The notes beneath the pieces were generated by a model. The model worked only from the letters and a program-made list of their open reading frames with translations. It had not been told where the DNA came from and did no database searches. This document shows, piece after piece, positions 41,078 through 56,916 of a stretch of 64,000 bases of DNA. The stretch is from NCBI RefSeq assembly GCF_018326285.1, contig NZ_AP023362.1:1178001-1242000 (forward strand), read 5' to 3'. Each line of letters opens with the position of its first letter. The stretch's first letter is position 1. The DNA is from Mycolicibacterium sp. TY81. Lineage in GTDB: Bacteria; Actinomycetota; Actinomycetes; Mycobacteriales; Mycobacteriaceae. A program made the translations under genes and the position numbers.

Positions 41078-42517
41078 TCACCAGGCCCGGAACGGCACGC
41101 TGGTGACGGTGGCGTCGTTCGGGCCGAACTGGACCGTCAGCTGCAGCGTCCACAGTCCCGGCCGCGGCGCGGTGGCATACGTGCTGTGCCAGTGACCGTC
41201 GGGACCCGCCGTGAAACGCACCGGCAGAGAGGCGATCTCGGCGCTCGACAGAGTGCCCCGCAGCCCGGTGGCACCGGGCACCGCGACGTCGATCGGGATG
41301 GCGCCGTGCCGCGTGGTGTCCAGATGCACCTGTGCCTGCCGACCCTCATCGAGTGCGGCGGTGGCGGTGAACGCGGGGCCGTACGTGGTGCGGGCGGGCG
41401 GCTCGCCGGTGAGCACCGTGGTCATGATCAAGACCAGCACCGCGAGCGCGGTCTCCCACGGTACGGTCCGGCGCAGCCGCTCCGGGGTGAGCCGGCGCCG
41501 GCCGAGGTAGGCCAGGGCGGCCATGAGCGTCACCAGGAAAACCTTGGCGCACAAGGCCATTCCGTAGCCGGTCGACCAGAGTGACTCGATCGGCGACACC
41601 TGCCGCCAGGCCTGATACTCGCCGGTGAGCAGGACCGCCGCGACGCAGCCGAACGCCACCCGGGACCACCGCTGCAGCTCGTCGCTGCGCCGGGCGGGCA
41701 GGACCACCAGCATCAGCACGGCCAGCCCGCCCAGCCACAGCGCCATGGCCAGCAGGTGGACGGTGGTGACGGTGGTGGCGAGCCACGGGTCCGGGCCTGC
41801 CGAGGCGTGCCCGGACGCGGCGACACCGGCCGCGAGTGCCGTAGCGATCACGACGAACAGCGCGGTCCCGGCGCGGGTGGTCGCCGCGAGCAGCACGAGC
41901 AGGGCGGCCTGCACGTAGAGCTGGATGTCGGGGCCGGTGGTGACGGCGTTGATGACGGTCGCGGCGGCCAGCAGCAGCCAGCCGATGCCGGCCAGGATGC
42001 GGGTGCGACGCAGGGCGAGCGCCCACGTCCACACCAGCCGGGCCGCCGCGAGCACACCGACACACAGCACCAGGCCGGCATACGTCAGACCGCGAGCGAC
42101 ATCCGACGCTACCGACGACGACGCGACCGGACGAACCTCCGGCGGCGCGTCCGGCGCCTGCTGCACACCGAAACTCACCGAGCCGGACACCTCGTGCCCG
42201 TCTGCCGACATCAGCCGCCACGTCGCGGTGTAGCTGCCGCGCGGCAGGTCCGGCGGCAGGTCCAGTTCCACGGTGGTGTTGCCCGACCGCTGCCGCACCT
42301 CCCGGTCGACCCGCGCGCCGGAGTTCGAAATCACCTGAACCGCACCGGGAATCAGGCGAACCGGCTCATCGAAGCTCAAGGTGACCCGGCTCGGCGCGGC
42401 CGGCAGGGTGGCGCCGTCCACCGGATCGCTGGAGACCAGGACGGCGTGCGCGTGTGCGAGGGGAGCCGGCAGCAGGAGCGCGAGCAGAGCCGCGAGCAGC
42501 GCTGCGACCGGTCTCAG
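41078..42517 (-). CDS. CopC-CopD fusion copper-resistance/uptake protein, apparent CTG start
   Basis: About 479 residues. N-terminal signal peptide, then a mature end AHAHAVLVSSDPVDGA: a CopC domain whose N-terminal His residues are typical copper ligands, with SADGHEVSG later. A CopD-type multi-helix membrane domain follows (about residues 155-390), then a C-terminal YtkA-like soluble domain. The first canonical start in frame (GTG 42421) would remove the signal and the His. CTG at 42517, 4 nt after the ycnI stop, is the only fitting start. It probably moves copper across the membrane. Confidence 0.85.
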   Translation of the reverse strand: MRPVAALLAALLALLLPAPLAHAHAVLVSSDPVDGATLPAAPSRVTLSFDEPVRLIPGAVQVISNSGARVDREVRQRSGNTTVELDLPPDLPRGSYTATWRLMSADGHEVSGSVSFGVQQAPDAPPEVRPVASSSVASDVARGLTYAGLVLCVGVLAAARLVWTWALALRRTRILAGIGWLLLAAATVINAVTTGPDIQLYVQAALLVLLAATTRAGTALFVVIATALAAGVAASGHASAGPDPWLATTVTTVHLLAMALWLGGLAVLMLVVLPARRSDELQRWSRVAFGCVAAVLLTGEYQAWRQVSPIESLWSTGYGMALCAKVFLVTLMAALAYLGRRRLTPERLRRTVPWETALAVLVLIMTTVLTGEPPARTTYGPAFTATAALDEGRQAQVHLDTTRHGAIPIDVAVPGATGLRGTLSSAEIASLPVRFTAGPDGHWHSTYATAPRPGLWTLQLTVQFGPNDATVTSVPFRAW

Positions 42518-42521
42518 TTTT

Positions 42522-43211
42522 CTAGTCGTGACTCGTCTTTCGTCGGGAGGCTGCCAGGCTAGCGATCGCCACCAGCAACGCGACCACCGACACGGCCAGC
42601 GCCGTCAGGCCCGGCCACGTCGGCGCCGCAGCCGCCGGAGCCGCGGCCGCGGGCCGGTCGTGGTCCCCGCCGCCGGCGGGCTTGAGGTGCAGGGCCGGCG
42701 CCGGGTGCTCGGGCTCGGGCTGGCCCGGGTTGGCCTTCTCGTTCCAGTTGACGGTCTTGCCGTCGCTGTAGGTCTGGACCGCGGGCAGCGTCAGCGTGTT
42801 GACCTTGGGCAGCGGGCCGGCCGAGATGGCGAAGACGTTGAACTGATGCGGCGGAATGGGCGCGTCCGGCGCGGTGGCCTTCCACTCGACCGACGAGACG
42901 TACTCGGTGACCTCGGCGCCGTCGTCGTCCTTCTGCGGAGCGGGAAGCTTCTTCTTGGTGATGGTCGCCGTCCAGCCGGCCTTCTGCTGCGTGCTGACCG
43001 AGATGATCGGCTGGTCGTCGGGCAGCACGACGAGCAGGCCGGTGGTGGACGCGGTGTCCGACTCGGTCGGCACGCGGAAGTTCAGCACGCCCCAGCCACC
43101 CTGGGTGGCGTCGCCGGTGACCTTGACGTGGGCGGCGGCCGGTGCGGCCAGCGCGACGGCGCAGGCCATCGTCGCGGTGACGGCGGCGAGGGTCTGGATC
43201 AGCTTGGGCAT
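42522..43211 (-). CDS. YcnI-type DUF1775 copper-binding protein
   Basis: 229 residues: signal peptide ending AAPAAAHVKV, so the mature chain starts with or near His. Bacillus YcnI binds Cu(II) through that N-terminal His and a nearby Trp (here in GGWGVLNFRVPTESD). A C-terminal transmembrane anchor follows (LTALAVSVVALLVAIASL). Same operon as the CopC-CopD gene, the pairing known from other bacteria. An IS110-type element lies just upstream and splits it from the DUF5134 gene. Confidence 0.88.
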   Translation of the reverse strand: MPKLIQTLAAVTATMACAVALAAPAAAHVKVTGDATQGGWGVLNFRVPTESDTASTTGLLVVLPDDQPIISVSTQQKAGWTATITKKKLPAPQKDDDGAEVTEYVSSVEWKATAPDAPIPPHQFNVFAISAGPLPKVNTLTLPAVQTYSDGKTVNWNEKANPGQPEPEHPAPALHLKPAGGGDHDRPAAAAPAAAAPTWPGLTALAVSVVALLVAIASLAASRRKTSHD

Positions 43212-43327
43212 GTTGTCCTTAAGTTTGTAGTTGCAGTTACTTCGTATTGCTGAGCGTTACGTTTGGCTGTGACCCGGGTGGGTCGGGTATGGCTGCCATG
43301 TTGGTGCCGGCCCTGGTGGTGCGGCTT

Positions 43328-44696
43328 GAAAGGACTGGCCGCCCGGCCTGCCTGGACTTCCTCGGGCCGCTGATTGAGATCTGCGATGCGATCGCTTGTT
43401 TAAGGAAATGCCGGCGAGGTCGTCCTTGGGGATTCTGTTGGCAGACAAGCGAAAAGAGGTCCGGTGACCGAAGACCAGGTATGGGCTGGCGTCGACGTCG
43501 GCAAAGAACATCACTGGGTGTGCGTCGTGGACGGCAACGGCAACATGGTGTTCTCGCGCAAGGTGGTCAACGACGAGCGCACGATCCGCGACCTGGTCGC
43601 CGAGGTCGAAAAGCTTGCCGGTGAGGTGTCCTGGGCGGTGGACTTGAGCAACGCGTACGCCGCACTGGTCCTCACGGTGCTGGCCGATGAAGGCAAGACG
43701 GTGCGTTACCTTGCGGGCCGGCAGGTGTGGCAAGCATCGGCCACCTACCGGGGTGGTGAATCCAAGACCGACGCCAAAGACGCCCGGGTGATTGCCGATC
43801 AATCCCGGATGCGCGGTGCGGACCTGCCGGTCCTGCGTCCCGGCGATGACCTGATCACCGAGCTGCGCATGCTCACCGCCCACCGCGCCGATCTGGTGGC
43901 CGATCGCACCCGCACCATCAACCGTCTGCGCCAACAACTGCTGGCCGTATGCCCGGCCCTCGAACGCGTCGCCGAGCTCAGCCAAGACCGGGGTTGGGCG
44001 GTGCTGCTGGCGCACTATCAACGGCCGAAAGCGATTCGCCGAACGGGTGTTTCGCGGCTGACCAAAGTTCTGGCAGCGGCCGGGGTGCGCAACGCCGCCA
44101 CGATCGCGGCTGCCGCGGTGACAGCGGCCAAAGCTCAGACCGTCCGCCTCGCGGGTGAAGATGTTGGCGCCGGATTGGTCGCCGAGCTGGCCCAAGGGGG
44201 TGATCAACCTCGATGAGCGCATCAAACACACCGACGCGGACATCGAGGAACGATTTCGCCGCCATCCGCTCGCCGAGGTGATCACCAGCCTGCCCGGCAT
44301 CGGCTTCCGACTCGGCGCCGAATTCCCTTGCCGTGGTCGGCGATCCCGCACTGCTCCAATCGCCTGACCAGCTCGCCGCCTGGGCCGGCCTGGCGCCGGT
44401 ATCCAAAGACTCCGGCAAACGCACCGGCCGGCTGCACACGCCCAAGCGCTACAGCCGCCGCCTGCGCCGGGTGATGTACATGTCCGCGCTGACCGCGATC
44501 CGCTGCGATCCCACGTCGAAGGCGTACTACCAGCGCAAACGAGACCAAGGCAAACGCGCTATCCCGGCCACCATCTGCCTGGCCCGCCGACGCGTCAACG
44601 TCCTTTACGCCCTCATCCGTGACAACCGGACCTGGCACCCCGACACGCCCCAAATCGCCACTGCGGCGGCTTGACACGGTCATTGAGAGTCCTTTC
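43328..44696 (+). mobile_element. IS110-family insertion sequence, degenerate
   Basis: GAAAGGACT (43328-43336) and its exact reverse complement (44688-44696) flank a broken IS110-type transposase gene; outward, 11 of 12 bases match. About 127 bp of non-coding sequence precede the transposase and only about 13 bp follow, the layout of the IS110 subgroup, in which the long 5' end encodes the bridge RNA. True ends may be a few bases further out. It is inserted between two minus-strand copper genes in the opposite orientation. Confidence 0.7.
43464..44674 (+). pseudogene. IS110-family transposase, two frameshifts
   Basis: The N-terminal DEDD RuvC-like domain is intact (GVDVGKEHHWVCVVD; WAVDLSNAY; KTDAKDARVIAD). 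The C-terminal Transposase_20 domain (SLPGIG; AGLAPVSKDSGKRTG) is in two other frames. Dropping one C from the CCC at 44191-44193 and one from the CCC at 44325-44327 restores a single product of about 402 residues. Either the copy is dead or the assembly has two C-run errors. Confidence 0.88.
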
Positions 44697-44703
44697 GAGA
44701 GGG

Positions 44704-45273
44704 TCAGACGGCCATGACGGCGAAGGCGGCGCTCATGCCGAGCGCCATGAGCAGGTCGGCGTACGGGCGCTTCGGCCCGCGCACCAGCAGGTAGAACCAC
44801 CACAGCGCGGCGGCGCAGAATCCGATCGCGAGCACGATGCACACCACGGTGAACCAGCCGGGGGGAGTCACGGCGACGGCGCCGTGACCCAGGTGGGCGC
44901 TGTGGTGACCGGAGGCTTGAGCTGTCGAACCGGCCGCAGCCACCGGAACGCCCGCATTGGGCGCCATCAGCAGGCCCATCAGTGCCATCGCGGCCATCAT
45001 CGTGCAGTGGTAGACGGGGTGCGGTAGCTCGAAGCCGAACAGGGCCAGGTAGGCGAAGTACAGCGCCCCGGCGGTGAACACCAGCACGTACAGCAGCGGC
45101 GACACCTGCATGCCCGCCGGCCAGAGCATCGCGATCATGCCCACCGAGGCCAGCGCATGCAGCACCCCGACGCCACGCTGTCCGGGCACCCGCCGTCCGG
45201 CACCCACGAACAGCAGCGCGGCCACCGCGAACACGGCAGTCAGCGCCCAGCGCAGGGCAGAGTCGGCGATCAC
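44704..45273 (-). CDS. DUF5134 integral membrane protein (first copy)
   Basis: 189 residues, about five to six membrane helices, with the motif MLWPAGM, a YHCTMMAAMALMG helix and a His-rich outer loop (SGHHSAHLGHG). It shares layout and motifs with the protein at 55550-56206. Copper or another soft metal is a likely ligand given His/Met spacing and neighbours. Its stop is 8 bp from the IS repeat; ycnI would have been the next gene before insertion. Confidence 0.8.
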   Translation of the reverse strand: MIADSALRWALTAVFAVAALLFVGAGRRVPGQRGVGVLHALASVGMIAMLWPAGMQVSPLLYVLVFTAGALYFAYLALFGFELPHPVYHCTMMAAMALMGLLMAPNAGVPVAAAGSTAQASGHHSAHLGHGAVAVTPPGWFTVVCIVLAIGFCAAALWWFYLLVRGPKRPYADLLMALGMSAAFAVMAV

Positions 45274-45301
45274 GCTGTCATTGGTCGTACGAAAGGGGGC
45301 T

Positions 45302-45760
45302 TCAGTTCCCGGCGGGCTTGAACCGCATGTCGGGCTGGGACCGTTCCAGCGGCGTCAGCACCACACCCAGCCAGCAGACGGCCAGCACCGCGGCAGCGAC
45401 GAAACCGGCCAGCGGCCACCACACCGAGACTCGCGCCGGTGACGTCTGGCACCACCAGACCGCGCCGAACCCGGCGGCCGTGGCCACGCCCGACAGGTAC
45501 AGCGCCGCGCAACAAACGCGAAACCGCTTGCGCCACAGCGCCGTTGCCGATGCAATCGCGGCCAGCGTGAACAGGATGGCGACGACCTTCAGTACCCACC
45601 GATGTGATTCCGACCAGCTGACCCCGGCAGACAGCACCAGCACGACGATCGCGACGGCGGTGGGGTAGCGGCGGGCGGGACCGATCCAGACCTCGTCGAA
45701 CACCCGGCGCCCGATGGCGCTCAGGGTGTGCTCGAGATCGATCGCGTGGCGGGTGGACAA
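45302..45760 (-). CDS. Small membrane protein of unknown function
   Basis: 152 residues with four hydrophobic segments (around 35-50, 58-75, 83-100, 115-135) and four cysteines (FRVCCAAL, WWCQTS, VCWLG). Start is TTG by reading frame and uncertain. It precedes the DUF5134 gene by 28 bp on the same strand, so one operon is likely. Confidence 0.65.
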   Translation of the reverse strand: MSTRHAIDLEHTLSAIGRRVFDEVWIGPARRYPTAVAIVVLVLSAGVSWSESHRWVLKVVAILFTLAAIASATALWRKRFRVCCAALYLSGVATAAGFGAVWWCQTSPARVSVWWPLAGFVAAAVLAVCWLGVVLTPLERSQPDMRFKPAGN

Positions 45761-45859
45761 GCCGAACTCCGTTCAGTCTGTAGACCAGTTTCGCAGAGTT
45801 GGTCGGACGCGCGGCAGTGTGGGTTCCGCGGTGGGTCGGCCGACGCTCTCGCCCGGGGC

Positions 45860-46825
45860 CTACCGCGGAGGAGCTCCTGCTCGGATCGTGCGGCTCACGC
45901 GGCCGAAATCATCGATCGCTGCGCGCTGATCCGGAATACGACTGGTGAATGCGGAGATCATGGCGGAGTACTCCGCCCAAGCCGCTTCACCGAACTGCAG
46001 CCGGACCTGTGATGGTGACATCAATTCGCTGTTGTTCGTGAAGTACTTGGGCGAGATGTCGGCATTCGGTCCGGTCGCCGTCGCGCGGGCGAAGAGGTAG
46101 TTCAGTTCGGTTTCTTCGATTCCCTGGGACCAGCCGGAGTTCGGGTCAACGGAGCGCACACCGGCTGTCGCGGCAAGTGCGGTCAGGCGCGCGACGGCCG
46201 CCACAGGCTCGCTCAGCGCTTTCGATGCGCCCGGCTGACGCCGGATGACTTCAGACAAGCTGTCCTGATACCTGGCTACCTGCCGGTCGATCGCCTGCCC
46301 GAGTATCAATGAGCTTGTCGGGTCGCTGGCGAGGACCGCAAGCAAACTGCGAGTTTTGGGCATTGCGCTGTCGAGTGCATCCAGCGGTGGAAACTGGGGT
46401 GTCAGTTGATCCTCGGTGACCAGGCTTCCGAGGTACGGGACGATAGCCAGCGTGTAGCTCTGAGTGAGGCCTGGGTTTTCGTTGCCCAGCTGCTCGAGAG
46501 AATCCGAATTGGCGGCGAGGTAGGTCGCAATGGTGTGAGCCGTCTCGGCCGCGAGTGCCCGGTCATCAGGGTTGGGTCCGGTTGCGGCCGCGGGTATCCA
46601 TTGGAACCAAGCGGTGACGCGATTGGATTGATCGCCCCATTTGTATGTGGAGACTGATTTCAGGAACTTTTGCCCGGCCGGGCCGGGGGCGATCTGGTGT
46701 ATGGATTTCGGGTCGGAATCCCCGGGCAGGTCCGGTGCGGACGGCGGATGAGAACACCCAGGCACGAATACGAGGGTTGCGAATACTGCCGCAAACCACC
46801 GATGACCGTAGCGAACATTTAGCAA
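45860..46825 (-). CDS. LppJ-like lipoprotein sharing a domain with the large protein upstream
   Basis: 321 residues. Signal peptide with lipobox FVPGC, so the protein should be lipid-anchored. The body aligns by eye with the C-terminal half of the 742-residue protein encoded just upstream: TGPNPDD, KTRSLLAVLASDP and GPNADISPKYFTNN here match NGPNSDI, NTRSLFAVMDSNP and TPNADIGPEYFTNN there. It resembles the M. tuberculosis LppJ/Rv2082 pair (recalled). Function unknown. Codons are more A/T-rich than in neighbours. Confidence 0.75.
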   Translation of the reverse strand: MLNVRYGHRWFAAVFATLVFVPGCSHPPSAPDLPGDSDPKSIHQIAPGPAGQKFLKSVSTYKWGDQSNRVTAWFQWIPAAATGPNPDDRALAAETAHTIATYLAANSDSLEQLGNENPGLTQSYTLAIVPYLGSLVTEDQLTPQFPPLDALDSAMPKTRSLLAVLASDPTSSLILGQAIDRQVARYQDSLSEVIRRQPGASKALSEPVAAVARLTALAATAGVRSVDPNSGWSQGIEETELNYLFARATATGPNADISPKYFTNNSELMSPSQVRLQFGEAAWAEYSAMISAFTSRIPDQRAAIDDFGRVSRTIRAGAPPR

Positions 46826-46832
46826 GTGATTG

Positions 46833-49061
46833 CTACTTCCTGGCGGGAGGGATTTGATCCAACGGTGCGTGGTAATTCTTGCCGAAATTTATAATCGACG
46901 AATCGAGAGAACGTTGTTGATTCGCGAAGTAGCGTTCTAGCGCGGCAGAATAATCGGACCATCCGGCTTCTCCGTATTTCACTCGAACTTCGGCAGGCGT
47001 CATCAACACTCCGGAACCGTTGTTGGTGAAGTACTCGGGCCCGATGTCAGCATTCGGTGTGTGTACCAGCTGAGCTGCGACTGTGTATGCGACTTGGGTG
47101 GACGCGTTCCCCAATCCCTGGCTGCCGCTTGGGGTGTCAATGTCAGGGGTGGAGTAGTCCCCGGGGAAACTGTCGATTTTCGGCTCTTTACCGATCATCG
47201 CGTCTTGGAAAGCCGAATGCGCGCGGTCGAACCCCGGAAGGTTCTCGCCAACCACGTCCCAAGCCAACTTCTTCATCTCCCACGCGTCATGTGCGCGGTC
47301 AAATGCACTTGCCTGGGTATTGTTGCCGTGCTGCTGTACTTCCATGAAAACTCCGGCATCAACGAGGCCGATTAGTCGACCCGCTCTGTCGAGGTCGGCT
47401 CGATGGGGGCTTGTACCGGTAATATTCGGATCCGTTTTTGCGGCTTCGGCGAATGATTTTTCGTAGTCCATGGCAGTTTTGTACGCATGGGCATTGAATT
47501 CTTTGGCTGCGTCGGGATTCGAGTCCATTACCGCGAACAGTGATCGGGTGTTATGTAGATTGCTGCCGAGTTGGTCCAGTGGTTCGAAGCCATGCTTATT
47601 CTCGCCTACCATGTCGGACTGGTAGGGCAGGAGTCCATGAGCCATGCTCTGTACCAACTTTGGATCCATCTCGCCGAGGCTGTGGTGACCGGGAAGATTG
47701 AGTAACTCTCCACCATGCACGCCGACGTAGTTGGCGTAGGCGTGGGCAGTTTTGGCGGCAATATCGGAATTCGGACCATTCGCCTCCTCGTTTGTCCAAC
47801 TGAACAACGATCCCGCCGCAGCACCGTTGTCCTTCCAGGCATGAGTGGTGATGTCGTGGATGAAATCGTTGCCTTTGTTGCTGGTGACGAGGTCGGATAC
47901 CGCAGTATGGTCGCGGCCCGCCGACTCGAAAATGCTGGAAACCGCGGGATCGATCCATGGGTCACGTTCACCCTCGCCCTTGACGCTCGCCGGGTCGTGC
48001 TCCCAAATGGGGGTATCCATTATTCGATCGGCTTTGTTGAGCATTTCCCGATCCAAACTGGTTCCCGCTTGTAGCGAGGAATTGCCATCCTTGACAATTC
48101 CCGAAATATCGTGCATTTGGTCTATATATTCTGCGCCAGGCGATTTTATCGCTGTCTGTACGCTTTGTGGAAGATTGTTAAATCCACCCTTCGTCATATC
48201 GTTCGGGTTGTCGAGGTCGCCCGGGTGTAGTGGAGTCTTCGGGAACTGCACCTTGTCGTTGCTCATCAATTGCCAGGAATTGGCGATGATGCCCTTTTGG
48301 TCGCCGAGGCGTTGTTCTGCGGCCTTGAGATCTTTGATGCTCATGCCGTTCTGCTGAGCCTGCATCTGACTGAGATACGAGCCTTGTTCGGGACTCAGCG
48401 GCTGTCCTGGCTTGATCGTGTCGAGTACATCACCGACCCGCTTCGCAGCTTTCTGGTCGCCGGCCAGCGCGTCATGCACATCTTTTTCCGCTCTCCGGCG
48501 AGCGTCGTCATCCTTCTCGCCCGTGAGTTTGTCGACGCCATCTTTGTCGCCGGGGCCTTTATCCTTCGGATCGCCGCCTAGCTCGTCCCAACCGGCTTTG
48601 AGGATATCTACTCGCCCCGCGATAGACGCCATTTCATTGTGCGTGCGTCGAATAATCTCGGAGATCTCGCTGCTGCCTTTAGAAACCACCGAGAACAGCT
48701 GTGCGTCTCCAGCGGCGGTTTTTGGCAAACCGGCGGCCGCATCGTTCACCCATTGGCGTACTGCGTCTAATTGTCGCCGACCTGCTAACACGGCATCGGC
48801 CGAGCGGGTGATCTCCACACCCATTTTCTGATCGAGTTCGGCCATGCGGCCGAACTTACGGGCGCGGGCGTCGTTGGCGTCGGCGTACGCATCGGACGCT
48901 GAGCCGGTCCAGTGAGAACCCGGCGCAGCCGACTGAGTTTGAGATTGGAGGTCGCGGAATTGGGAGCTCTTGTCGTATCCGCTGCCGTCCACCGGGACGC
49001 CCTCACCGAACGTAGCCCGCGTTTGGCCCCAAATCGCATTGAAGGCATCCAATGCACCCAC
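46833..49061 (-). CDS. Large WXG100-like (EspA/EspE- or Rv2082-type) protein
   Basis: 742 residues, no signal peptide. The N-terminal 110 residues look like a WXG100/EspA helical hairpin, with the W-T-G turn at residues 51-53 (GSHWTGSASDAYADAND). A charged hinge follows (about 165-215), then a long helical region and the domain shared with the downstream lipoprotein. This suggests type VII secretion, but no ESX machinery is in the window. GTG start at 49061; the lipoprotein gene starts 7 bp after the stop. A/T-richer composition suggests transfer. Confidence 0.75.
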   Translation of the reverse strand: MGALDAFNAIWGQTRATFGEGVPVDGSGYDKSSQFRDLQSQTQSAAPGSHWTGSASDAYADANDARARKFGRMAELDQKMGVEITRSADAVLAGRRQLDAVRQWVNDAAAGLPKTAAGDAQLFSVVSKGSSEISEIIRRTHNEMASIAGRVDILKAGWDELGGDPKDKGPGDKDGVDKLTGEKDDDARRRAEKDVHDALAGDQKAAKRVGDVLDTIKPGQPLSPEQGSYLSQMQAQQNGMSIKDLKAAEQRLGDQKGIIANSWQLMSNDKVQFPKTPLHPGDLDNPNDMTKGGFNNLPQSVQTAIKSPGAEYIDQMHDISGIVKDGNSSLQAGTSLDREMLNKADRIMDTPIWEHDPASVKGEGERDPWIDPAVSSIFESAGRDHTAVSDLVTSNKGNDFIHDITTHAWKDNGAAAGSLFSWTNEEANGPNSDIAAKTAHAYANYVGVHGGELLNLPGHHSLGEMDPKLVQSMAHGLLPYQSDMVGENKHGFEPLDQLGSNLHNTRSLFAVMDSNPDAAKEFNAHAYKTAMDYEKSFAEAAKTDPNITGTSPHRADLDRAGRLIGLVDAGVFMEVQQHGNNTQASAFDRAHDAWEMKKLAWDVVGENLPGFDRAHSAFQDAMIGKEPKIDSFPGDYSTPDIDTPSGSQGLGNASTQVAYTVAAQLVHTPNADIGPEYFTNNGSGVLMTPAEVRVKYGEAGWSDYSAALERYFANQQRSLDSSIINFGKNYHAPLDQIPPARK

Positions 49062-49142
49062 AGCAGTTGACCTCCCCGCACTGTTGTGGGGTTCAGTCTA
49101 TGGCGCCCTACGTCAGGTCAGGCCCGCCAATTTCGCAGCGAC

Positions 49143-49697
49143 TCAGCCCGCGCTCTGGTCCTGATTCCCCGCCCGCAGCAGATCGTCGCGGGCCCGGGCG
49201 ACCCGGGAGCGGATGGTGCCGACGGGGCAGCCACAGATTTCGGCGGCCTCGGCGTAGGACAGGCCCAGCACCTGGGTCAGCAGCAGCGCTTCCCGGCGGT
49301 CGGCGTCGACGCCGTCGAGCAGCATGCGGATTTCGACGATGTCCTCGAACCGGGCGGTCGGCTGGTGCATGTCGATGACGGTCTCGGGCTCGATGGCGGC
49401 GCTGCTGCGCGGCCGGCACTGCTTGCGCCGGATGTGGTCGACGACGACGCGGCGCGCGATCGACAACAGCCAGGTGCGGGCCGTCGACCGGCCGCGGAAC
49501 CGGGGCAGCGAGCCGAGGGCGCGCAGGTAGGTCTCCTGCGTCAGATCGTCGGCGCTGCCGGGCTCGTCGAGGTAGGCGACAGTGCGCCAGACATCGCGCT
49601 GGGTAGCCTTGATGAACTGCTCCAATGCGGCGCGATCGCCCCGGCCGGCCGCCAATGCGAGGCGGGTCACCTCGTCGTCGTCGCCGCGGCTGTTCAC
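49143..49697 (-). CDS. sigC: ECF RNA polymerase sigma factor SigC
   Basis: 184 residues, matching SigC of M. tuberculosis (about 185). Region 2 ([20 protein letters not shown], then [19 protein letters not shown]) and region 4 ([20 protein letters not shown]) are intact. GTG at 49697 begins [13 protein letters not shown]; the longer open frame upstream runs antisense to the ATPase. Divergent from the copper ATPase with 105 bp between. In M. tuberculosis SigC controls copper acquisition genes including ctpB (recalled); here they are neighbours. Confidence 0.88.
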
Positions 49698-49802
49698 AGG
49701 CCGACCATATGCGACGGTTGCCGGGAACTCACAGCCGGGCACGTCCGACCATTGATTTGGTAGCCCGCACAGCGCAGGACACGACCGGGGGACAATAGGA
49801 GG

Positions 49803-52067
49803 ATGATGACGGCCAGCACAGCGGTCGGCAGCGCGGTCGACGCTGCCGCAGCTGCCGACGACAGTGCGGCCGCGCGCCGGGTGCAGCTCGACGTGACCGG
49901 CATGACGTGCGGCGCCTGCTCCGCGCGAGTCGAGCGGACGCTCAACAAGATGCCGGGTGTCCGCGCCTCGGTGAACTTCGGCACCCGCGTGGCCACGGTC
50001 GACGCCCTTCCCGAGATCGCCGATTCCGAGCTGTGCGACGCGATCCGCAAGGCCGGTTACGACGCCGAGCCCCGCTCCGGCGTGATCGCCGGCGACCGCG
50101 ACGACGAGGATCTGTCGCACGCCCACTACCTGCTGCGCCGCCTGCTGGTGGCCGCGGTGCTGTTCGTTCCGCTCGCCGATCTGTCGGTGATGTTCGCCGT
50201 CGTCCCCAGCACCCGTTTCACCGGTTGGCAGTGGGTGCTCACGGCGCTGGCGCTGCCGGTCGTGACGTGGGCCGCCTGGCCGTTCCACCGCGTCGCGTTG
50301 CGCAATGCCCGCAATCGTGCGGTCTCCATGGAGACCCTGATCTCGGTCGGCGTGTCCGCGGCCACGGTCTGGTCGCTCTACACGGTCTTCTTCGGACACC
50401 ACGCCACCGAGGCCACCGGCATCTGGCAGGCCCTCGTCGGCAGCGACGCGATCTACTTCGAGGTCGCCGCCGGCGTCACGGTGTTCGTGCTGGCGGGCCG
50501 TTACTTCGAGGCCCGCGCCAAGTCCAAGGCAGGCAGTGCGTTGCGCGCGCTCGCGGCCCTCAGCGCGAAGAACGTCACGGTCCTGCTCGCCGACGGCACC
50601 GAAATGGTGATCCCGGCCGAGGAGCTCGCCGAGCAACAGAAGTTCGTGGTGCGCCCCGGTCAGACCATCGCGGCCGACGGACTCGTGGTCGAGGGCTCGG
50701 CCGCCGTCGACACCAGCGTGATGACGGGCGAGGCCAAGCCGGTGCGCGCGACGCCCGGCAGCAGCGTCATCGGCGGCACGATCGTGCTCGACGGACGCCT
50801 GATCGTCGAGGCCGCCGCGGTCGGCGCCGACACCCAGTTCGCCGGCATGGTGCGACTGGTCGAGGAAGCGCAGGCGCAGAAGGCCGAGTCGCAGCGCCTC
50901 GCCGACCGCATCGCCTCGGTGTTCGTGCCGTGCGTCTTCGCCATCGCCGCGCTGACCGCGCTGGGCTGGGCGCTGGCCGGGGCCGGCCCCGACAAGGTTT
51001 ACGCGTCCGCGCTGGCGGTTCTGGTCATCGCGTGCCCGTGCGCGCTGGGCCTGGCCACGCCGACGGCGATGATGGTGGCGTCCGGACGCGGCGCCCAGCT
51101 CGGCATCTTTCTCAAAGGGCACCGCTCGCTCGAGGCGATCCGGGCCGTCGACACCGTCGTCTTCGACAAGACGGGCACCCTGACCACCGGGCACCTGGCC
51201 GTCACCGCGGTCACGGCTGCCGACGGCTGGGAGTCCGACGACGTGCTGGCCCTCGCCGCGGCGGTGGAGTCGGCGTCCGAACACGCGGTCGCGGTGGCCA
51301 TCACCACGTCGGCGCCCGAGCATGCGGAAGTCGTTGATTTCCAGGCTGTTCCCGGTCGCGGCGTCGTCGGCACCGTGGGGGAGCGCGAGGTGCGCATCGG
51401 CAAGCCGGCCTGGGCGGCCGGCCGGGCCGCGGTGCCCGCGGCCCTCGCGGAAGCCCGGCGCGGCGCGGAATCCCGCGGCGAGACAGTGGTTTTCGTGGCC
51501 GTCGACGACGAGCTGTGCGGTGCCATCGCGGTCGCTGACGCGGTGCGCGAATCGGCGGCGGGTGCCATCGCGGCACTGCACGAACGTGGGCTGAAGACCA
51601 TCCTGCTGACCGGCGACAACCCGGCGGCCGCCGCCGCGGTGGGTGCCGCGGTGGGGATCGACGACGTCATCGCCGATGTGCTGCCGGACGGCAAGGTCGA
51701 CGTCATCCAGCAGCTGCGCGACCGCGGCCGCATGGTCGCGATGGTCGGTGACGGTATCAACGACGGCCCGGCGCTGGCCTGCTCGGATCTGGGCCTGGCC
51801 ATCGGCCGCGGCACGGACGTCGCGATCGGCGCCGCCGACATCATCCTCGTCCGCGACAGCCTGGATTCGGTGCCGCAGGCCCTGGACCTGGCCAAGGCGA
51901 CCATGCGCACCATCCAGTTGAACCTGGTGTGGGCCTTCGGCTACAACATCGCCGCCATCCCGGTGGCCGCCGCCGGGCTGCTGAACCCGCTGATCGCCGG
52001 CGCGGCGATGGCCTTCTCGTCGTTCTTCGTGGTGTCGAACAGCCTGCGCCTGCGCAACTTCAAGTGA
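49803..52067 (+). CDS. ctpB: Heavy-metal P1B-type ATPase, CtpB/CtpA-like (copper)
   Basis: 754 residues. N-terminal heavy-metal domain with [10 protein letters not shown] (CxxC), eight membrane helices, the Cu(I)-type CPC motif ([10 protein letters not shown]), phosphorylation site [15 protein letters not shown] and [10 protein letters not shown]. The nucleotide-domain HP motif reads SEHAVAV, with Ala for Pro. CPC and the Cys pair support Cu(I). The CtpB rather than CtpA label rests on its position by sigC and the Rv0102-like gene. The stop lies within a 25-bp inverted repeat. Confidence 0.88.
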
Positions 52068-52117
52068 TTTGTGCACGATTTTCCGCGCGTGACGCGGAAA
52101 ATCGTGCACAAATCACT
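52063..52117. terminator. Perfect 25-bp inverted repeat between ctpB and the CtaG gene
   Basis: Arms 52063-52087 and 52093-52117 are exact reverse complements around a 5-nt loop. It contains the ctpB stop codon and ends 14 bp before the stop of the convergent gene. Likely a bidirectional terminator, unusually long. Confidence 0.7.
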
Positions 52118-52131
52118 GGTTGACGTCGGGA

Positions 52132-54066
52132 CTACTGCTGGCCGCGCTGGCGGGCCAGCTCGCGCAGCATCGCGTTGTAGGCATCCAGGTCGTCGTCGGC
52201 ATAGTCCGCGTCGGCGTGCCGGTCGGCGCGGGAGGCGGCGCGGCGATCCTGCCGCGCCCACTGTGCCACCAGGGCGATGACCACCAGGATCACCGGCAGT
52301 TCGCTCGAACCCCACGCGATGGCGCCGCCGAGGTGCTGGTCGGCGCCGATGCTCGACAGCCACGGCAGGCCGACGAACTTGTAGAACGGTCCGCCGATGG
52401 TGTCGGTCATGGTCATGGTCGCGATGCCGAAGAACGCGTGAAAAGGCATGACCGCGAACAACAATCCGAGCCGGCCGAGGAACGGCAGGCGCTTGGGGCC
52501 CGGGTCGATGCCGATGATGCCCCAGTAGAAGAGGTAGCCGACCAGCAGGAAGTGCACGCTCATCAACTCGTGGCCCCAGTGGTAGCGGACGAGCGTGTTG
52601 AAGATCGGGGTGAAGTACACCGCGTACAGCGACGCGACGAACAGCACGAACGCCACGATCGGATTCGACAGGGCGGCGGTGACTTTCGAGTGCACGAGCC
52701 ACAGGATCCATTCGCGGGGTCCGGGCGGGGCGCCCTCGCCGGCCGGGGGCAGGGCGCGCAGCGCCAGGGTCACCGGGCCGCCCAGCACCAGGAGCACCGG
52801 CACGAACATGTTGAGCGTCATGTGCTCGCCCATGTGGACGCTGAACATCGCCGAGCCGTAGGCCCGCACACCCGAGCTACTGGTGAAAAGCAGTGCCGCG
52901 CAGCCGATCAGCCACGCGAGCAACCGGCCCACCGGCCACTCGTCGCCCCGGCGCCGCAGCTTCAGGTAGGCGTAGAGATAGGCGCCGGCAAGCACCAGCG
53001 CACCGATGCCGATGAAGGTGTCGAACCGCCAGACCGTCAGCAGCCGAACCACATTCGGCGGGTCGGGCAGCTCGTAGCCGAGGAAGACGTCCCAGGTCGT
53101 GTACTTGTGGTGCAGCAGGCGCGGCGCGGTTTGCACCGCCATCGCGGACACCGCGGCGAGCGCGGTGAGCGCGGGCAGGCAGGTGGCCAGTCGGGACGGC
53201 TTGGCGCGGCGCAGCGCCGCGGCATCGGTGATCCACGACGCCGCCAGCGCGATCGCCGCGACGATGGCCCACCGTCCGTAATCGCTGCCCGTCAGTCCGG
53301 GCGGGCCGAGTTGTTCGGCCAGCAGCAGCACGCCGTAGATCAGGGCCGCGGTGCCGCAGGCCACCTGGATGATGAGCACCCGCCGGTAGAGGTCGGCGGC
53401 CGGCGGGCTGATGACGGCCGCGATCTTGGTGCCGGCCAGCACCGCCAGTGCCACCGCGAACACGATGACCGCGCTGGTCGTGTAGTCGTGGTCGGGCCCT
53501 TCGCTGGCGTTGCCGGTCACCGGCAGCGCCAGGACGCCGATCACGCTCGGGAGCAACAGCACGACCATGGCGATCCACCGCACGCTGAACCGCAGCGTCA
53601 GCGCCACGACCGCGGCGCACAGGGTGGCGACGATCCAGCCGCGGGCCATCTCGGACGCACCGATGGCCTCACCCAGTCGGCCGCTCTCGACCAGCCGCAG
53701 GGCCGGCGCGCCGGCGTCGGTCGCTGCCTGCACCACCACCATGAACGCTGCGGCGACCAGCCAGACCAGCGAAACCCGTTCCAGCACAAGGTGGATGCGG
53801 TAAGTGGGTGGGTCGATGACGCCCTTGGAGTCGGGCCGGGCGGTGGTCACGATGTACAGCAGGCCGCCGAGGCAGATCGCGGCGGCGAGGACGGCCGTGA
53901 AGTAGCCGACCGGTTCGGCCACAGCGGTGAACGTGCCGGGGTAGCTGTCGCCGGTGGCGACGAAGCGCTGGTCGCCCGAGATGAGTGCGTAGGTGACCAA
54001 GGCGGCGACCGCGGCCAGATAACCCAACAGCGGCAGCGTGATCCTGCCCGCCCGGTCCGAGCCCAT
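52132..54066 (-). CDS. CopD-CtaG fusion, cytochrome oxidase assembly / copper transport protein (Rv0102-like)
   Basis: 644 residues and about fourteen membrane helices: an N-terminal CopD-type copper-transport domain (to about residue 340) and a C-terminal Caa3_CtaG domain with histidines in [28 protein letters not shown] and [10 protein letters not shown]. tuberculosis Rv0102 has this build and lies beside ctpB (Rv0103c), the same pairing as here. It may pass copper to the CuA/CuB sites of the aa3 oxidase. Confidence 0.85.
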
Positions 54067-54107
54067 CGAAATACCGGCCTTCCACCTGAAGAACTGATCA
54101 GGCCCAG

Positions 54108-54128
54108 TCTACGACCAGGTGTCGTAGA
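54108..54128. promoter_or_regulatory. Candidate operator between the CtaG and PepSY genes
   Basis: TCTACGAC (54108-54115) and its reverse complement GTCGTAGA (54121-54128) have a 5-bp spacer in the 113-bp gap between divergent genes. The shape recalls BlaI/CopY-family operators, an inference. No known regulator gene is adjacent. Confidence 0.5.
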
Positions 54129-54179
54129 AATTTTCCGGGCGCAGGAACTCCTGGCGCCGCGGGCCGACCAATACAAGTT

Positions 54180-55553
54180 GTGAGTCACACCCAACTGCCC
54201 GAATCGGACGTTGCCGTCGCGTCCGATCCGTCGGCGTGGAAGCGCTTCCGCCCGGCATTGCTGCGGCTGCACTTCTACGCCGGCCTGTTCGTCGCGCCGT
54301 TCATCCTGATCGCAGCCGTCACCGGGCTGCTGTACGCGGTGATCCCGCAGATCGACAGCGCGGTGTACCGGCACGAACTCACCGTCGACCACGTCGGCGA
54401 CCGCCAGCTGCCGCTGGCAGCCCAGCTGGCAGCCGTCCGGGCCGCGCATCCGGAGGGCACCGTCACCAGCATCCGGCCGCCCGCCGCGGCCGACGAGACG
54501 ACGCAGGTGACGCTCGCGGTCGACGACGTCCCCGCCGACTACGCGCGCACGGTGTTCGTCGACCCGTACACCGGCGCGATCCGCGGCGCCCTGACCACCT
54601 ACGGCCAGTGGCTGCCGGTGCGGGCCTGGTTCGACGAACTGCACCGCAACCTGCACCTCGGCGCCTTCGGCCGCAACTACAGCGAACTGGCCGCGAGCTG
54701 GTCGTGGGTGATCGCCGGCGTCGGCCTGATGCTGTGGATCGGGCACAACCGGGGACAGCCGCGGCGGCTCGTCGTTCCGGATGTGCGGGCGACCGGGCGG
54801 CGCCGGCTGCTGTCGTGGCACGGCACCCTCGGGGTCTGGATCCTCGCGGCGGTGGCGCTGCTGGCGGTGTCGGGCATGACGTGGTCGCGGTTCGCGGGGG
54901 AGAACGTCGCACAATTGCGGACGCAGCTGAGCTGGACCAGCCCGTCCGTCGACACCGCGCTGCCGGGGCAGACCGCCGGGGCGGCGTTGGATGAGGCCAC
55001 CGCGCTGCGCGGGGCCGACGCGGCGCTGCGGGTCGCCCATGACGCGCACCTGCGGACCCCGATGTGGATGTATCCGCCGGCGACGGCGGGCCAGGGCTGG
55101 CAGGTCGCCGAGCGCAAGCGTGATTGGCCGACGCAGTACGACGCGATCGTCGTCGACCCCGCCACGGGCACGGTGACGGCGCGGCTTGACTTCGCCGAGT
55201 GGCCGCTCATGGCCAAGATGACCGACTGGGTCATCGACCTGCACATGGGCATTCTGTTCGGCCTGGTCAACCAGCTCGCGCTGATCGCGGTCGCCCTCGC
55301 GATGATCGTCGGGATCCTGCTGGGTTACCGCATGTGGTGGCGTCGCCGCCCGACCCGCGGGAACGGGTTCGCCCTCCCGACCGGGCAACGGCGCGGCGCG
55401 CTGTCGGCGCTGCGGCCCCATGAGGCGGCGCTGCTGGTGCTCGTTCTCGGTGGCGTCGGGTGGTTCGCCCCGTTGTTCGGCCTCACGCTGGCCCTGTTCG
55501 TCGCGGTCGACGTGGCACTGGGCTGGCGGCAGCGGCGGCGGGCGGCCAAGTGA
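54180..55553 (+). CDS. PepSY-associated TM-helix membrane protein
   Basis: 457 residues with the layout of the PepSY_TM family: a first helix with LHFYAGLFVAPF, PepSY-type outer domains, and further helices with histidines (HRNLHLGAFG, SWHGTLGVWIL, DLHMGILFG) that could bind heme b as in bacterial ferric reductases. A reductase for copper or iron before uptake would fit the locus. GTG start. The next gene overlaps its stop by 4 bp. Confidence 0.85.
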   Translation: MSHTQLPESDVAVASDPSAWKRFRPALLRLHFYAGLFVAPFILIAAVTGLLYAVIPQIDSAVYRHELTVDHVGDRQLPLAAQLAAVRAAHPEGTVTSIRPPAAADETTQVTLAVDDVPADYARTVFVDPYTGAIRGALTTYGQWLPVRAWFDELHRNLHLGAFGRNYSELAASWSWVIAGVGLMLWIGHNRGQPRRLVVPDVRATGRRRLLSWHGTLGVWILAAVALLAVSGMTWSRFAGENVAQLRTQLSWTSPSVDTALPGQTAGAALDEATALRGADAALRVAHDAHLRTPMWMYPPATAGQGWQVAERKRDWPTQYDAIVVDPATGTVTARLDFAEWPLMAKMTDWVIDLHMGILFGLVNQLALIAVALAMIVGILLGYRMWWRRRPTRGNGFALPTGQRRGALSALRPHEAALLVLVLGGVGWFAPLFGLTLALFVAVDVALGWRQRRRAAK

Positions 55554-56206
55554 TCGCCGACATCTGGCTCCGGTTGTTCGTGACCGGGATATTCGTGCTG
55601 AGCGCGGCGCAGTGCGTCTATGCCCTGGTCACGGCCCGTGCGGACCGGGCCTGGATCGACCAGACGAGCCGCGCGCTGCACCTGTTGATGGCGGTGGCGA
55701 TGCTCGTCATGGCGTGGCCGGCGGGGATGGGTGTGCCGAACCGGCCGCCGATGGTGTTCTTCCTGCTGGCGGCCGGCTGGTTCGTCGTGGTCCTGGCGGT
55801 GCGCGCCGGCCACCGGGTCGCCGACGGCTATCACGCGGTGATGATGCTGGCGATGGCGTGGATGTACGCCGTGATGGACGGGCGGGTGCTGCCCGGGCAG
55901 TGCGCCGGGACCGCCGCCGACGCGCCGCAGTCGGCGTCGTCGATGCCGTCCATGCCGGGCATGGACATGTCCGGGACGACGGCGCATTCGGGGCCGATGG
56001 GCGGCTGCGGGCACCCGGCGGCGTGGGTGGACGCCGTGAACTGGGCGCTCACCGCGATGTTCGGGGCCGCCGCATTGTGGTGGGCCATCCGCTACTTCGC
56101 GGTGCGGCAGGAGCGGCCCGACGTCCCGGCCCGGCTGTGGTTCGCCGTGGCCTGTCAGGCCATGGCGGCGGCCGGGATGGCGATCATGTTCGCCGTGATG
56201 ATCTAG
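55550..56206 (+). CDS. DUF5134 integral membrane protein (second copy), Met/His-rich loop
   Basis: 218 residues, about six helices. Shares LHLLMAVAMLVMAWPAGM and YHAVMMLAMAWM with the protein at 44704-45273. The loop has MPSMPGMDMSG, HSGPMGGCGHP: a metal-binding look with alternating Met typical of Cu(I) sites. GTG at 55550 overlaps the PepSY stop. Stops of this gene and the convergent anti-sigma-like gene overlap at CTAG. Confidence 0.82.
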   Translation: MIADIWLRLFVTGIFVLSAAQCVYALVTARADRAWIDQTSRALHLLMAVAMLVMAWPAGMGVPNRPPMVFFLLAAGWFVVVLAVRAGHRVADGYHAVMMLAMAWMYAVMDGRVLPGQCAGTAADAPQSASSMPSMPGMDMSGTTAHSGPMGGCGHPAAWVDAVNWALTAMFGAAALWWAIRYFAVRQERPDVPARLWFAVACQAMAAAGMAIMFAVMI

Positions 56207-56916
56207 GCCGCATTGCCGTCGGTGGGCCACAGGTGGCCCCGGCGGCGGCCGCGGGAGGCGTTGTCCGGCAGCGTGATGTCGTCGAGCGTGGGTGCCGCGT
56301 CGCGGTCCGGCCGCGGCGGCTCGCCGGCATGGCGGCGCCACACCAGCACCGTCAGCACCACCCCGGCCAGCGCCGGCAGATGGCTCAGCATGCGGACCGC
56401 ACCGACTGCTCCGGTCAGTCCGTCGACGACGACGTAGCCGGTGAGCACGAGGGTGAACACGCCGCCGACGATCGCCAGGCCCATCGCCGCGGTCGGGCGG
56501 GCGGCGGCGACCAACATGCCGACGCCGAGTGCGACGGACCACGCCGTCGACTCGTTGACCACATGTCCGCCCGCGGCATGCCCGACGTGCACGCCGATGC
56601 TGACGCCCGCCGCCTGCAGCACGGCCAGGACGATCTGGATGGCGCCCACCACCGCGAGGCCGATGCGCAGCCAGTCGAGGCCGGGGCGGGTTTCGGGGAG
56701 CGCGGTCTGCGAGACCGTGTCGGCCACGGCGGTGATCCGGGTGCGGTCGGCGGCGATCAGCCCGCGCAGCAGCTGCATCTGGCTGTCCAGCTCGTCCTGC
56801 CACTGCCGGCACTCGGGGCAGGACGCCAGGTGCTCGTCGACGCGGCGCGCGGGGACGGGTTCGTGCTCGCCGTCCATCCGCGCGGACAGCGCCTCCCGGG
56901 CAATCTCGCACTCCAC
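56203..56916 (-). CDS. Zinc-finger (zf-HC2) anti-sigma-factor-like membrane protein
   Basis: 237 residues. The N-terminus CEIAREALSARMDGE and the ZAS-type motif HLASCPECR (HX3CX2C) match zinc-binding anti-sigma factors. Four to five transmembrane helices and a cytoplasmic tail follow. GTG at 56916. No sigma factor is adjacent; the only one in the window is sigC, 6.5 kb away in the same copper block. The loop HVGHAAGGH has three His. It is the right border of the block. Confidence 0.82.
   Translation of the reverse strand: MECEIAREALSARMDGEHEPVPARRVDEHLASCPECRQWQDELDSQMQLLRGLIAADRTRITAVADTVSQTALPETRPGLDWLRIGLAVVGAIQIVLAVLQAAGVSIGVHVGHAAGGHVVNESTAWSVALGVGMLVAAARPTAAMGLAIVGGVFTLVLTGYVVVDGLTGAVGAVRMLSHLPALAGVVLTVLVWRRHAGEPPRPDRDAAPTLDDITLPDNASRGRRRGHLWPTDGNAA

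What the first reader, a model, noticed from the sequence alone, without database searches (positions are those of the whole stretch)
41078..56916. A 16-kb copper block with SigC, inserted into an otherwise conserved segment
Everything left and right follows the M. tuberculosis order, and there RNase AS (Rv2179c) and aroG (Rv2178c) are neighbours. Here they are split by a CopC-CopD fusion, YcnI, two DUF5134 proteins, SigC, a CPC-type copper ATPase, a CopD-CtaG fusion, a PepSY heme-type protein and a zf-HC2 protein. In M. tuberculosis SigC activates copper acquisition genes scattered elsewhere (ctpB, Rv0102 region). Here regulator, pump, possible reductase, periplasmic carriers and oxidase-assembly factor are together. 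I propose a self-contained system that captures copper, perhaps reduces it, and delivers it to the aa3 oxidase encoded 15-25 kb away.
Basis: partly seen in the sequence, partly recalled or inferred. Interest (0 to 1): 0.78.

Follow-up and report, generated by a model that had tools for sequence, protein, structure and literature searches.

The report
SigC-controlled copper-scavenging gene block
A fast-growing mycobacterium carries, side by side, a copper-shortage regulator, its probable membrane-bound inhibitor and a set of copper-handling genes, several of them behind the same type of genetic switch; the layout suggests how pieces scattered in other mycobacteria belong together and points to an inhibitor that may itself feel copper.

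Summary
The block is real: RNase AS and aroG are neighbours in 29 of 29 other genomes read, not here. Corrections: it also holds an IS110-type copy (43.2-44.7 kb) and two EspA/EspE-type genes (45.9-49.1 kb), absent from three near relatives compared. Its core order, sigC-pump-ctaG-DUF5134-rscA, recurs in many mycobacteria.

It looks like the core of the SigC copper-starvation regulon. A promoter GGGAAC-N17-CGAC precedes the pump, DUF5134, rscA and other genes in many loci. The strict form averages 1.95 per genome in 61 SigC-bearing genomes and 0.19 in 37 without. In this genome it also precedes a ppe1-like gene of a chalkophore-type locus 2.75 Mb away, so the block is not self-contained.

The zf-HC2 protein is RscA, the putative anti-SigC: matched in all 61 SigC genomes (one only partly) and in one frame with SigC in 26. 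Invariant His and Asp residues, predicted at its outer face, make it a candidate copper sensor (inferred). The SigC-copper link, RscA's name and the fusion were in print; my ten paper searches showed no report of the rest. Delivery to aa3 oxidase is untested.

The parts
41078..42529 (-). CopC-CopD fusion (periplasmic copper binding + membrane part)
   Evidence: Pfam PF04234 E 3.9e-25, PF05425 E 1.1e-17; only CopC match in this genome
42522..43211 (-). YcnI-like DUF1775 protein
   Evidence: Pfam PF07987 E 5.1e-43
43220..44689 (+). Insertion with an IS110-type transposase (assignment recalled from its sequence, no family search), frame broken
   Evidence: ORF 43464-44216 and further pieces in other frames; gap against L102, L104, L105
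44704..45273 (-). DUF5134 membrane protein a
   Evidence: Pfam PF17197 E 8.2e-23
45282..45310 (-). SigC-type promoter before DUF5134a, exact match to GGGAACT-N16-CGACYA
45302..45760 (-). 152-aa membrane protein of unknown family that recurs in the cassette
   Evidence: no Pfam match over a cut-off; recurs in related loci
45802..45827 (-). SigC-type promoter GGAAC-N17-CGAC before the 152-aa protein
   Evidence: found before this gene in 20 of 27 non-redundant loci
45860..46825 (-). Lipoprotein-like ORF sharing a segment with the EspE-like gene; part of the 3.3-kb insertion, no sign of a copper gene
   Evidence: no Pfam match; repeat D8; gap against L102, L104, L105
46833..49061 (-). EspA/EspE-family protein with TPR_23, part of the same insertion
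   Evidence: PF23275 E 7.5e-56, PF18879 E 6e-22
49143..49697 (-). ECF sigma factor SigC
   Evidence: NCBIfam NF007231 over cut-off; M. tuberculosis SigC chains 2o7g and 2o8x are the best PDB hits
49723..49751 (+). SigC-type promoter of the ATPase gene, exact match to the strict pattern
   Evidence: GGAAC-N17-CGAC before this gene in 55 of 61 non-redundant loci
49803..52067 (+). P1B copper ATPase of the CtpA/CtpB group
   Evidence: TIGR01511 503.8 bits, cut-off 397; tree
52063..52117 (.). 25-nt perfect inverted repeat between the convergent ATPase and ctaG genes, possible two-way terminator
   Evidence: I6
52132..54066 (-). CtaG-type cytochrome oxidase assembly protein with a long N-terminal membrane part (Rv0102-like, name recalled)
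   Evidence: PF09678 E 1.5e-85
54144..54168 (+). SigC-type promoter before PepSY-DUF5134b, spacer 16; a degenerate second candidate at 54089-54117
54180..55553 (+). PepSY_TM membrane protein
   Evidence: PF03929 E 1.3e-69
55550..56206 (+). DUF5134 membrane protein b with a Met/His-rich stretch (MPSMPGMDMSG)
   Evidence: PF17197 E 1.6e-32; sequence
56203..56916 (-). RscA: zf-HC2 domain + 4 predicted long helices after it, putative anti-SigC
   Evidence: PF13490 E 5.8e-9; co-occurs with SigC; helices in model

Best explanation
The block is the chromosomal core of a SigC-RscA copper-starvation regulon. RscA, a membrane protein with four predicted membrane helices and an HxxxCxxC zinc-finger domain, holds SigC inactive while copper is sufficient. 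When copper falls, SigC is released and transcribes, from GGGAAC-N17-CGAC-type promoters, the P1B ATPase, PepSY-DUF5134b, the 152-aa protein and DUF5134a (in four relatives followed closely by ycnI-copCD), the distant ppe1/chalkophore-type locus and, in many relatives, rscA itself, which closes a negative loop. The products capture copper outside (CopC, YcnI, chalkophore), move it through the membrane (CopD, ATPase) and hand it to cytochrome aa3 assembly (CtaG). Shown here: gene content, recurring order, shared promoter sequence, SigC-RscA co-occurrence and fusion. Inferred: binding of SigC by RscA, use of the promoter by SigC, copper as the signal, direction of transport, delivery to aa3.
For: SigC identity. 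RscA matched in 61 of 61 SigC genomes out of 98, against 3 of 37 without SigC (137, 46 and 20 bits). RscA and SigC in one open frame in 26 of 61 genomes by equal frame lengths; 6 of 6 that I fetched read through. De novo dyad GGAAC-N17-CGAC upstream of the ATPase in 55 of 61, DUF5134b 42 of 60, rscA 48 of 84, the 152-aa gene 20 of 27, DUF5134a 4 of 4 and PepSY 12 of 26 non-redundant loci; letter shuffles give 0.12 loci or fewer per set. Strict pattern 1.95 per genome in 61 SigC+ and 0.19 in 37 SigC-; reversed control 1.26 and 1.24. The same promoter lies before a PPE gene and an Rv0097-like gene of this genome; ppe1-nrp is a SigC/copper-starvation target in M. tuberculosis (PMC7924339, PMC9600254; passages read). 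The Rv0097-like gene is in 23 of 98 genomes, all of them SigC+. In other genera 12 of 13 fetched RscA loci (five weak ones of genus g3 apart) hold SigC, and 8 of these 13 have the promoter 35-44 bases before rscA.
Against: No expression or binding data for this organism. The motif was derived from these same promoters and the genus-wide count includes in-block sites, so the ppe1-type sites and the other genera are the more independent tests. ctaG (0 of 64), sigC (0 of 70), copCD (0 of 6) and ycnI (1 of 8) lack the promoter in their own direction. The loose pattern is no more frequent in this genome than its reversed control (33 against 33). With two mismatches the window has 6 hits against 2.4 expected. 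rscA's own -35 box is degenerate in this window's clade. 5 of 5 fetched RscA-like loci of genus g3 lack SigC and the promoter. One of the 61 SigC genomes (G083) has only partial RscA matches (49 bits). G074 lacks SigC but keeps RscA and a motif-like site before its pump. Co-occurrence was not corrected for phylogeny. The fusion model has pTM 0.37 and was not used.
Confidence: 0.76

Rival explanations
1. The block is a copper-resistance (efflux) island: CopCD and a CopA-type ATPase detoxify copper, and SigC is a bystander.
For: CopC/CopD and P1B-1 ATPases are often annotated as copper resistance (recalled); the ATPase groups with the RscA-adjacent, CtpA-type pumps, and PMC9147137 (passages read) calls CtpA a probable exporter for delivery to cuproenzymes.
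Against: SigC-type promoters precede several genes; no TACCC-N5-GGGTA site (RicR/CsoR-type pattern, recalled) within one mismatch in 64 kb; in M. tuberculosis SigC acts against copper starvation (PMC7924339, passages read).
Confidence: 0.1
2. SigC-RscA senses the state of the respiratory chain or redox, not copper as such; copper genes are one output that restores the oxidase.
For: CtaG in the block and oxidase genes nearby. C. glutamicum SigC is recalled to answer aa3 defects; one paper with these terms was seen only in a listing.
Against: RscA's invariant His/Asp residues, predicted at the outer face, look like a metal site; the promoter-bearing genes are copper genes and a chalkophore-type locus.
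Confidence: 0.25
3. The genes merely accumulated at one spot; the position beside aroG is a rearrangement without functional meaning.
For: The position beside aroG was seen in 7 of 80 named loci, all near relatives (L102-L108), and the block is broken here by two insertions.
Against: The core order recurs in other mycobacteria without aroG or RNase AS in the fetched stretches, and in other genera, with a common promoter.
Confidence: 0.05

Closest known systems
M. tuberculosis SigC copper-starvation regulon (ctpB, ppe1-nrp)
   Same: Orthologous sigma factor; a pump of the CtpA/B group, an Rv0102-like CtaG protein and a chalkophore-type locus as neighbours or promoter-bearing genes.
   Different: There sigC is monocistronic (PMC7924339) and the pieces are scattered (recalled); here sigC, rscA, pump, CtaG, DUF5134, PepSY, YcnI and CopCD lie together, and the promoter also precedes DUF5134, PepSY and the 152-aa protein.
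sigC-rscA of the M. mucogenicum clade and the sigC-Rv0093c fusion of the M. avium complex (PMC6917791, PMC7563442; passages read)
   Same: Same pair; PMC6917791 already reports rscA four or five genes from sigC in this clade, PMC7563442 the fusion.
   Different: The passages I read name neither the copper genes between them nor a promoter or a sensor site; supplements were not readable.
ECF36 group with DUF2275 anti-sigma fusions (PMC8999054; passages read)
   Same: SigC is placed in ECF36; some members carry N-terminal fused parts with 3-4 membrane helices and DUF2275.
   Different: Here the two are separate genes with other genes between them; the fusion occurs elsewhere in the genus.
B. subtilis YcnI-YcnJ copper uptake (recalled, not read)
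   Same: DUF1775 next to a CopC-CopD fusion.
   Different: Neighbour of an ECF sigma factor here, not of the Bacillus regulator.

Membership tests
SigC orthologue | Passes a curated SigC model and is closest to M. tuberculosis SigC among solved structures | tested here: met
   NF007231 254.9 bits, cut-off 219; best PDB hits 2o7g, 2o8x
SigC orthologue | Drives the pump and ppe1-nrp genes | tested here: inconclusive
   Shared promoter sequence before both in this genome; no expression data
Zinc-binding (ZAS) anti-sigma factor | zf-HC2 domain with HxxxCxxC | tested here: met
   PF13490; H29, C33, C36 invariant in 29 rows, C3 in the 26 rows that reach it
Zinc-binding (ZAS) anti-sigma factor | Genetic pairing with its sigma factor | tested here: met
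   61 of 61 SigC genomes, one by a partial match; 26 in one frame
Zinc-binding (ZAS) anti-sigma factor | Binds and inhibits the sigma factor | not testable with these tools
   Fusion model pTM 0.37, not usable
Zinc-binding (ZAS) anti-sigma factor | Fold like solved anti-sigma factors | tested here: inconclusive
   Best Foldseek match E 0.36, none is an anti-sigma factor in the 50 rows shown
DUF2275 family | PF10039 match | tested here: not met
   Window RscA shows only zf-HC2 at E up to 1; both fused relatives scanned match PF10039, as do several close homologues
Copper-transporting P1B ATPase | Curated copper ATPase model and CPC motif | tested here: met
   TIGR01511 503.8 bits, cut-off 397; ACPCALG in the sequence
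CtpB orthologue | Groups with the CtaG-adjacent pumps of slow growers | tested here: not met
   Tree of 38 rows puts it with RscA-adjacent pumps, support 95/96; no M. tuberculosis sequence was in the tree, the CtpA/CtpB labels go by neighbourhood and recall
CopD-CtaG fusion | CopD domain in the N-terminal half | tested here: not met
   Only Caa3_CtaG found at E 1e-3

The most novel reading that the evidence does not exclude
RscA is a direct outer-face copper sensor: His118, Glu122, Asp165 and His179, invariant in 29 aligned RscA rows and predicted to sit near the extracytoplasmic ends of its helices, hold copper; loss of copper frees SigC, which also refills RscA. In slow growers with the fusion, sensor, inhibitor and sigma factor are one polypeptide, so copper starvation would be read and executed by a single protein.
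Probability: 0.33. Interest if true: 0.78.

Novelty: new variant of a known kind. Interest (0 to 1): 0.56.

Why it matters
A 2021 paper states that no anti-SigC factor had been identified (PMC7924339), while another names a putative rscA without a tested function (PMC6917791; passages read of both). The pairing in 61 of 61 genomes, the fusion, the shared promoter and the copper neighbourhood turn this into a defined circuit that can be tested in fast-growing relatives. It also adds two DUF5134 proteins, a PepSY protein and a 152-aa membrane protein to the list of probable copper-starvation genes. Pumps 68-78% identical to the window's in many environmental mycobacteria seem at odds with the statement that CtpB is conserved only in the tuberculosis, marinum/ulcerans and leprae groups (PMC9147137), though I compared no M. 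tuberculosis pump.

Tried and rejected
SigC-type and other ECF patterns recalled from memory (such as SSSAAT-N16-20-CGTSS, GGAAC-N-CGTC, GGAAC-N-GTT) gave few hits before the block genes: at most 9 of 70 (sigC, GAAC-N-CGTC, 1.6 expected) and 3 of 8 (ycnI, GGAAT-N-CGTC, 0.0 expected; not followed up); the de novo dyad replaced them. RNA families: none over the gathering score in the window. RicR/CsoR-type palindrome (recalled): none. Foldseek with the RscA model: nothing significant. The AlphaFold model of the fused protein was too weak to show how the zinc domain meets SigC. DUF5134 is in no paper of the library. The ten paper searches were made; of papers I read passages only, no whole text. 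The BCG binding-site paper cited in PMC7924339 as ref. 11 was not read, so I cannot say whether its promoter elements equal mine. Recalled, from no call: Rv0093c beside ctpA, the name Rv0102, the IS110 assignment, YcnJ, the M. tuberculosis gene order, the RicR/CsoR pattern.
Full report
WHAT IS THERE. The interval lies in a 6.47-Mb genome; the closest named RscA relatives (92-96% identity) are from Mycolicibacterium mucogenicum and M. phocaicum. Pfam and NCBIfam confirm CopC-CopD, YcnI/DUF1775, two DUF5134 proteins, SigC, a copper ATPase, a CtaG protein, PepSY_TM and zf-HC2. Alignment with three relatives shows both as gaps (window 43220-44689 and 45857-49143 have no counterpart in L102, L104 and L105). 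The Esp pair has G+C 0.58, the neighbouring cassette parts 0.70-0.72. Without them the relatives L102, L104, L105 and L107 show one run: rscA, DUF5134b, PepSY, ctaG, ATPase, sigC, 152-aa protein, DUF5134a, ycnI, copCD. L103 has the run only as far as sigC within its 20.7 kb.

POSITION. RNase AS and aroG are adjacent in 29 of 29 other genomes for which a locus was given (the 30 best of 95 matches, one being the window). aroG lies next to rscA in 7 of the 80 named loci, L102-L108, all near relatives. So the cassette probably moved to this site in an ancestor of this clade. Its G+C (0.71 for sigC to rscA) is like that of its flanks (0.69), which gives no sign of a recent foreign origin.

CONSERVED CORE. 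In 40 stretches fetched from 35 genomes of the genus, sigC and the pump are divergent neighbours among the mapped genes in 23 genomes, and the order sigC(-) pump(+) ... ctaG(-) [PepSY(+)] DUF5134b(+) rscA(-) recurs with changes; the fused genomes keep only rscA-sigC. Named loci show the same. CopCD and/or YcnI travel with it in few: L062, L081, L102, L104, L105, L107, L108, L131 and, in other genera, L303, L313, L314. Some slow growers hold two pumps; the RscA/SigC-adjacent and the CtaG-adjacent ones form separate clades, and the window's pump sits with the former (38 rows; rows with stops, under 55% identity or short were left out).

RSCA AND SIGC. In 98 genomes, SigC (E up to 1e-22) is in 61 and RscA (E up to 1e-3) in 64; all 61 SigC genomes have an RscA match (G083 only partial ones, 49 bits), and 34 have neither. 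RscA without SigC: G074 (137 bits), G091 (partial, 46 bits), G070 (20 bits, probably chance). The thresholds differ and phylogeny was not corrected for. In 26 genomes both matches report the same open-frame length and lie side by side in one direction, RscA first; the six that I fetched read through from RscA into SigC. 452 proteins match such a fusion, and the 120 listed carry zf-HC2, DUF2275 and sigma domains. Where the genes are separate they mostly also point the same way with rscA upstream, so loss of the genes between them would give the fusion; in other genera they are often divergent. M. lepromatosis (G075, L163) keeps RscA beside the pump while its best SigC match lies about 1 Mb away; a 37% match lies nearer. 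The fusion in the M. avium complex, with Rv0093c, and the name rscA are already published (PMC7563442, PMC6917791; passages read); PMC6917791 states four or five genes between them in this clade.

PROMOTER. A de novo dyad search over upstream regions returned GGAAC-N17-CGAC as the top hit for the pump. It is present in 55 of 61 (pump), 42 of 60 (DUF5134b), 48 of 84 (rscA), 20 of 27 (152-aa), 4 of 4 (DUF5134a), 12 of 26 (PepSY), 0 of 64 (ctaG, sense), 0 of 70 (sigC, sense), 1 of 8 (ycnI) and 0 of 6 (copCD) non-redundant loci, the window included; letter shuffles give 0.12 or fewer per set. In the window it precedes the pump (49724), PepSY (54144, spacer 16), the 152-aa gene (45827) and DUF5134a (45309); two more matches of the relaxed form lie elsewhere in the window (25187, 382). 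The window's rscA has the -10 box but a degenerate -35, as have six relatives. With up to two mismatches the strict pattern has 6 window hits against 2.4 expected, so only the exact ones carry weight.

TEST ACROSS GENOMES. The strict pattern GGGAACT-N16-CGACYA occurs 1.95 times per genome in 61 SigC+ and 0.19 times in 37 SigC- genomes (51 of 61 against 6 of 37 with at least one); the reversed control does not differ (1.26, 1.24); Mann-Whitney p 5e-11, not corrected for phylogeny. The count includes sites inside the cassette from which the pattern came. More independent: in this genome two further sites lie 1.5 kb apart at 3.98 Mb, before a PPE protein (strict match) and before a TauD-type Rv0097-like enzyme (loose match), with an AMP-binding enzyme further on: the layout of ppe1-nrp, the chalkophore locus that SigC controls in M. 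tuberculosis. The loose pattern as a whole is not enriched in this genome (33 against 33 for the reversed control). Sites before ORFs that resemble this PPE protein also appear in L275, L276, L277, L283 and L096, there beside the fused rscA-sigC (by eye, no family search of these). The Rv0097-like gene is in 23 of 98 genomes, all of them SigC+.

BEYOND THE GENUS. RscA-type matches were found in 56 of 201 genomes of the family and 17 of 31 genera, weak and partial ones included. I fetched loci from 18 of the 45 genomes outside the genus that matched. Of the 13 outside genus g3, 12 contain SigC (L303 ends at a contig end), and 8 have the promoter 35-44 bases before rscA. The five g3 loci (genomes of 2-3 Mb) have weak RscA matches and neither SigC nor promoter. 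The short distance suggests a leaderless or nearly leaderless rscA mRNA.

HOW IT MAY WORK. RscA's zinc motif is invariant: H29, C33, C36 (29 rows). The model gives a helical N-terminal domain and four long helices (78-102, 114-139, 143-168, 180-197; mean pLDDT 76, about 64 at 111-120). If the zinc domain is inside, H118, E122, D165, R175 and H179, all invariant and kept in at least 90% of the 43 wider rows, lie at or near the outer face. Several relatives carry HGHGH or HH in the first loop. A copper site there would make RscA the sensor: an inference from conservation, assumed topology and neighbourhood. SigC-driven rscA would be a negative loop. CopC, YcnI and CopD as capture and import, pump and CtaG as delivery to aa3, rest on family knowledge; PMC9147137 itself leaves open whether CtpB imports copper or directs it to aa3 (passages read).

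WHAT IS NEW. Known: SigC and copper starvation, ctpB and nrp as targets, rscA by name, the fusion, ECF36/DUF2275. In my ten paper searches (listed in Tried and rejected) I saw no report of the cassette as a copper unit, of one promoter shared across its genes and genera, of rscA behind that promoter, of DUF5134, PepSY and 152-aa members, or of the outer-face residues. That library lacks most subscription papers, and I read passages only.

VERDICT. A real, recurring copper-starvation cassette, not self-contained, in a strain where two insertions have probably weakened its linkage. New variant of a known kind.

Noticed in passing
window 45857-49143: Insertion of two EspA/EspE-type genes, low G+C, between sigC and its neighbours in three relatives compared; the two ORFs share a repeated segment.
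   Followed up: partly
window 43220-44689: IS110-type element between DUF5134a and ycnI, transposase frame broken.
   Followed up: partly
L273 about 4702, strand -: Another exact SigC-type promoter match in this genome, followed by an ORF for an apparently exported His-rich protein (AHPGHDHGG); possible further copper-binding member.
   Followed up: no
L174 (M. ostraviense), L280 (G074): RscA without a SigC match, while the pump keeps a motif-like site; possible natural loss of the sigma factor.
   Followed up: partly
G083 (L101 and contig C2): Three SigC-like copies with partial RscA matches and four strict promoter sites: an apparent amplification of the pair.
   Followed up: no
window 52063-52117: 25-nt perfect inverted repeat between convergent ATPase and ctaG genes.
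   Followed up: no
upstream of ycnI in 3 of 8 loci: A GGAAT-N15-20-CGTC match in 3 of 8 loci where shuffles give 0.0; a possible second type of promoter.
   Followed up: no
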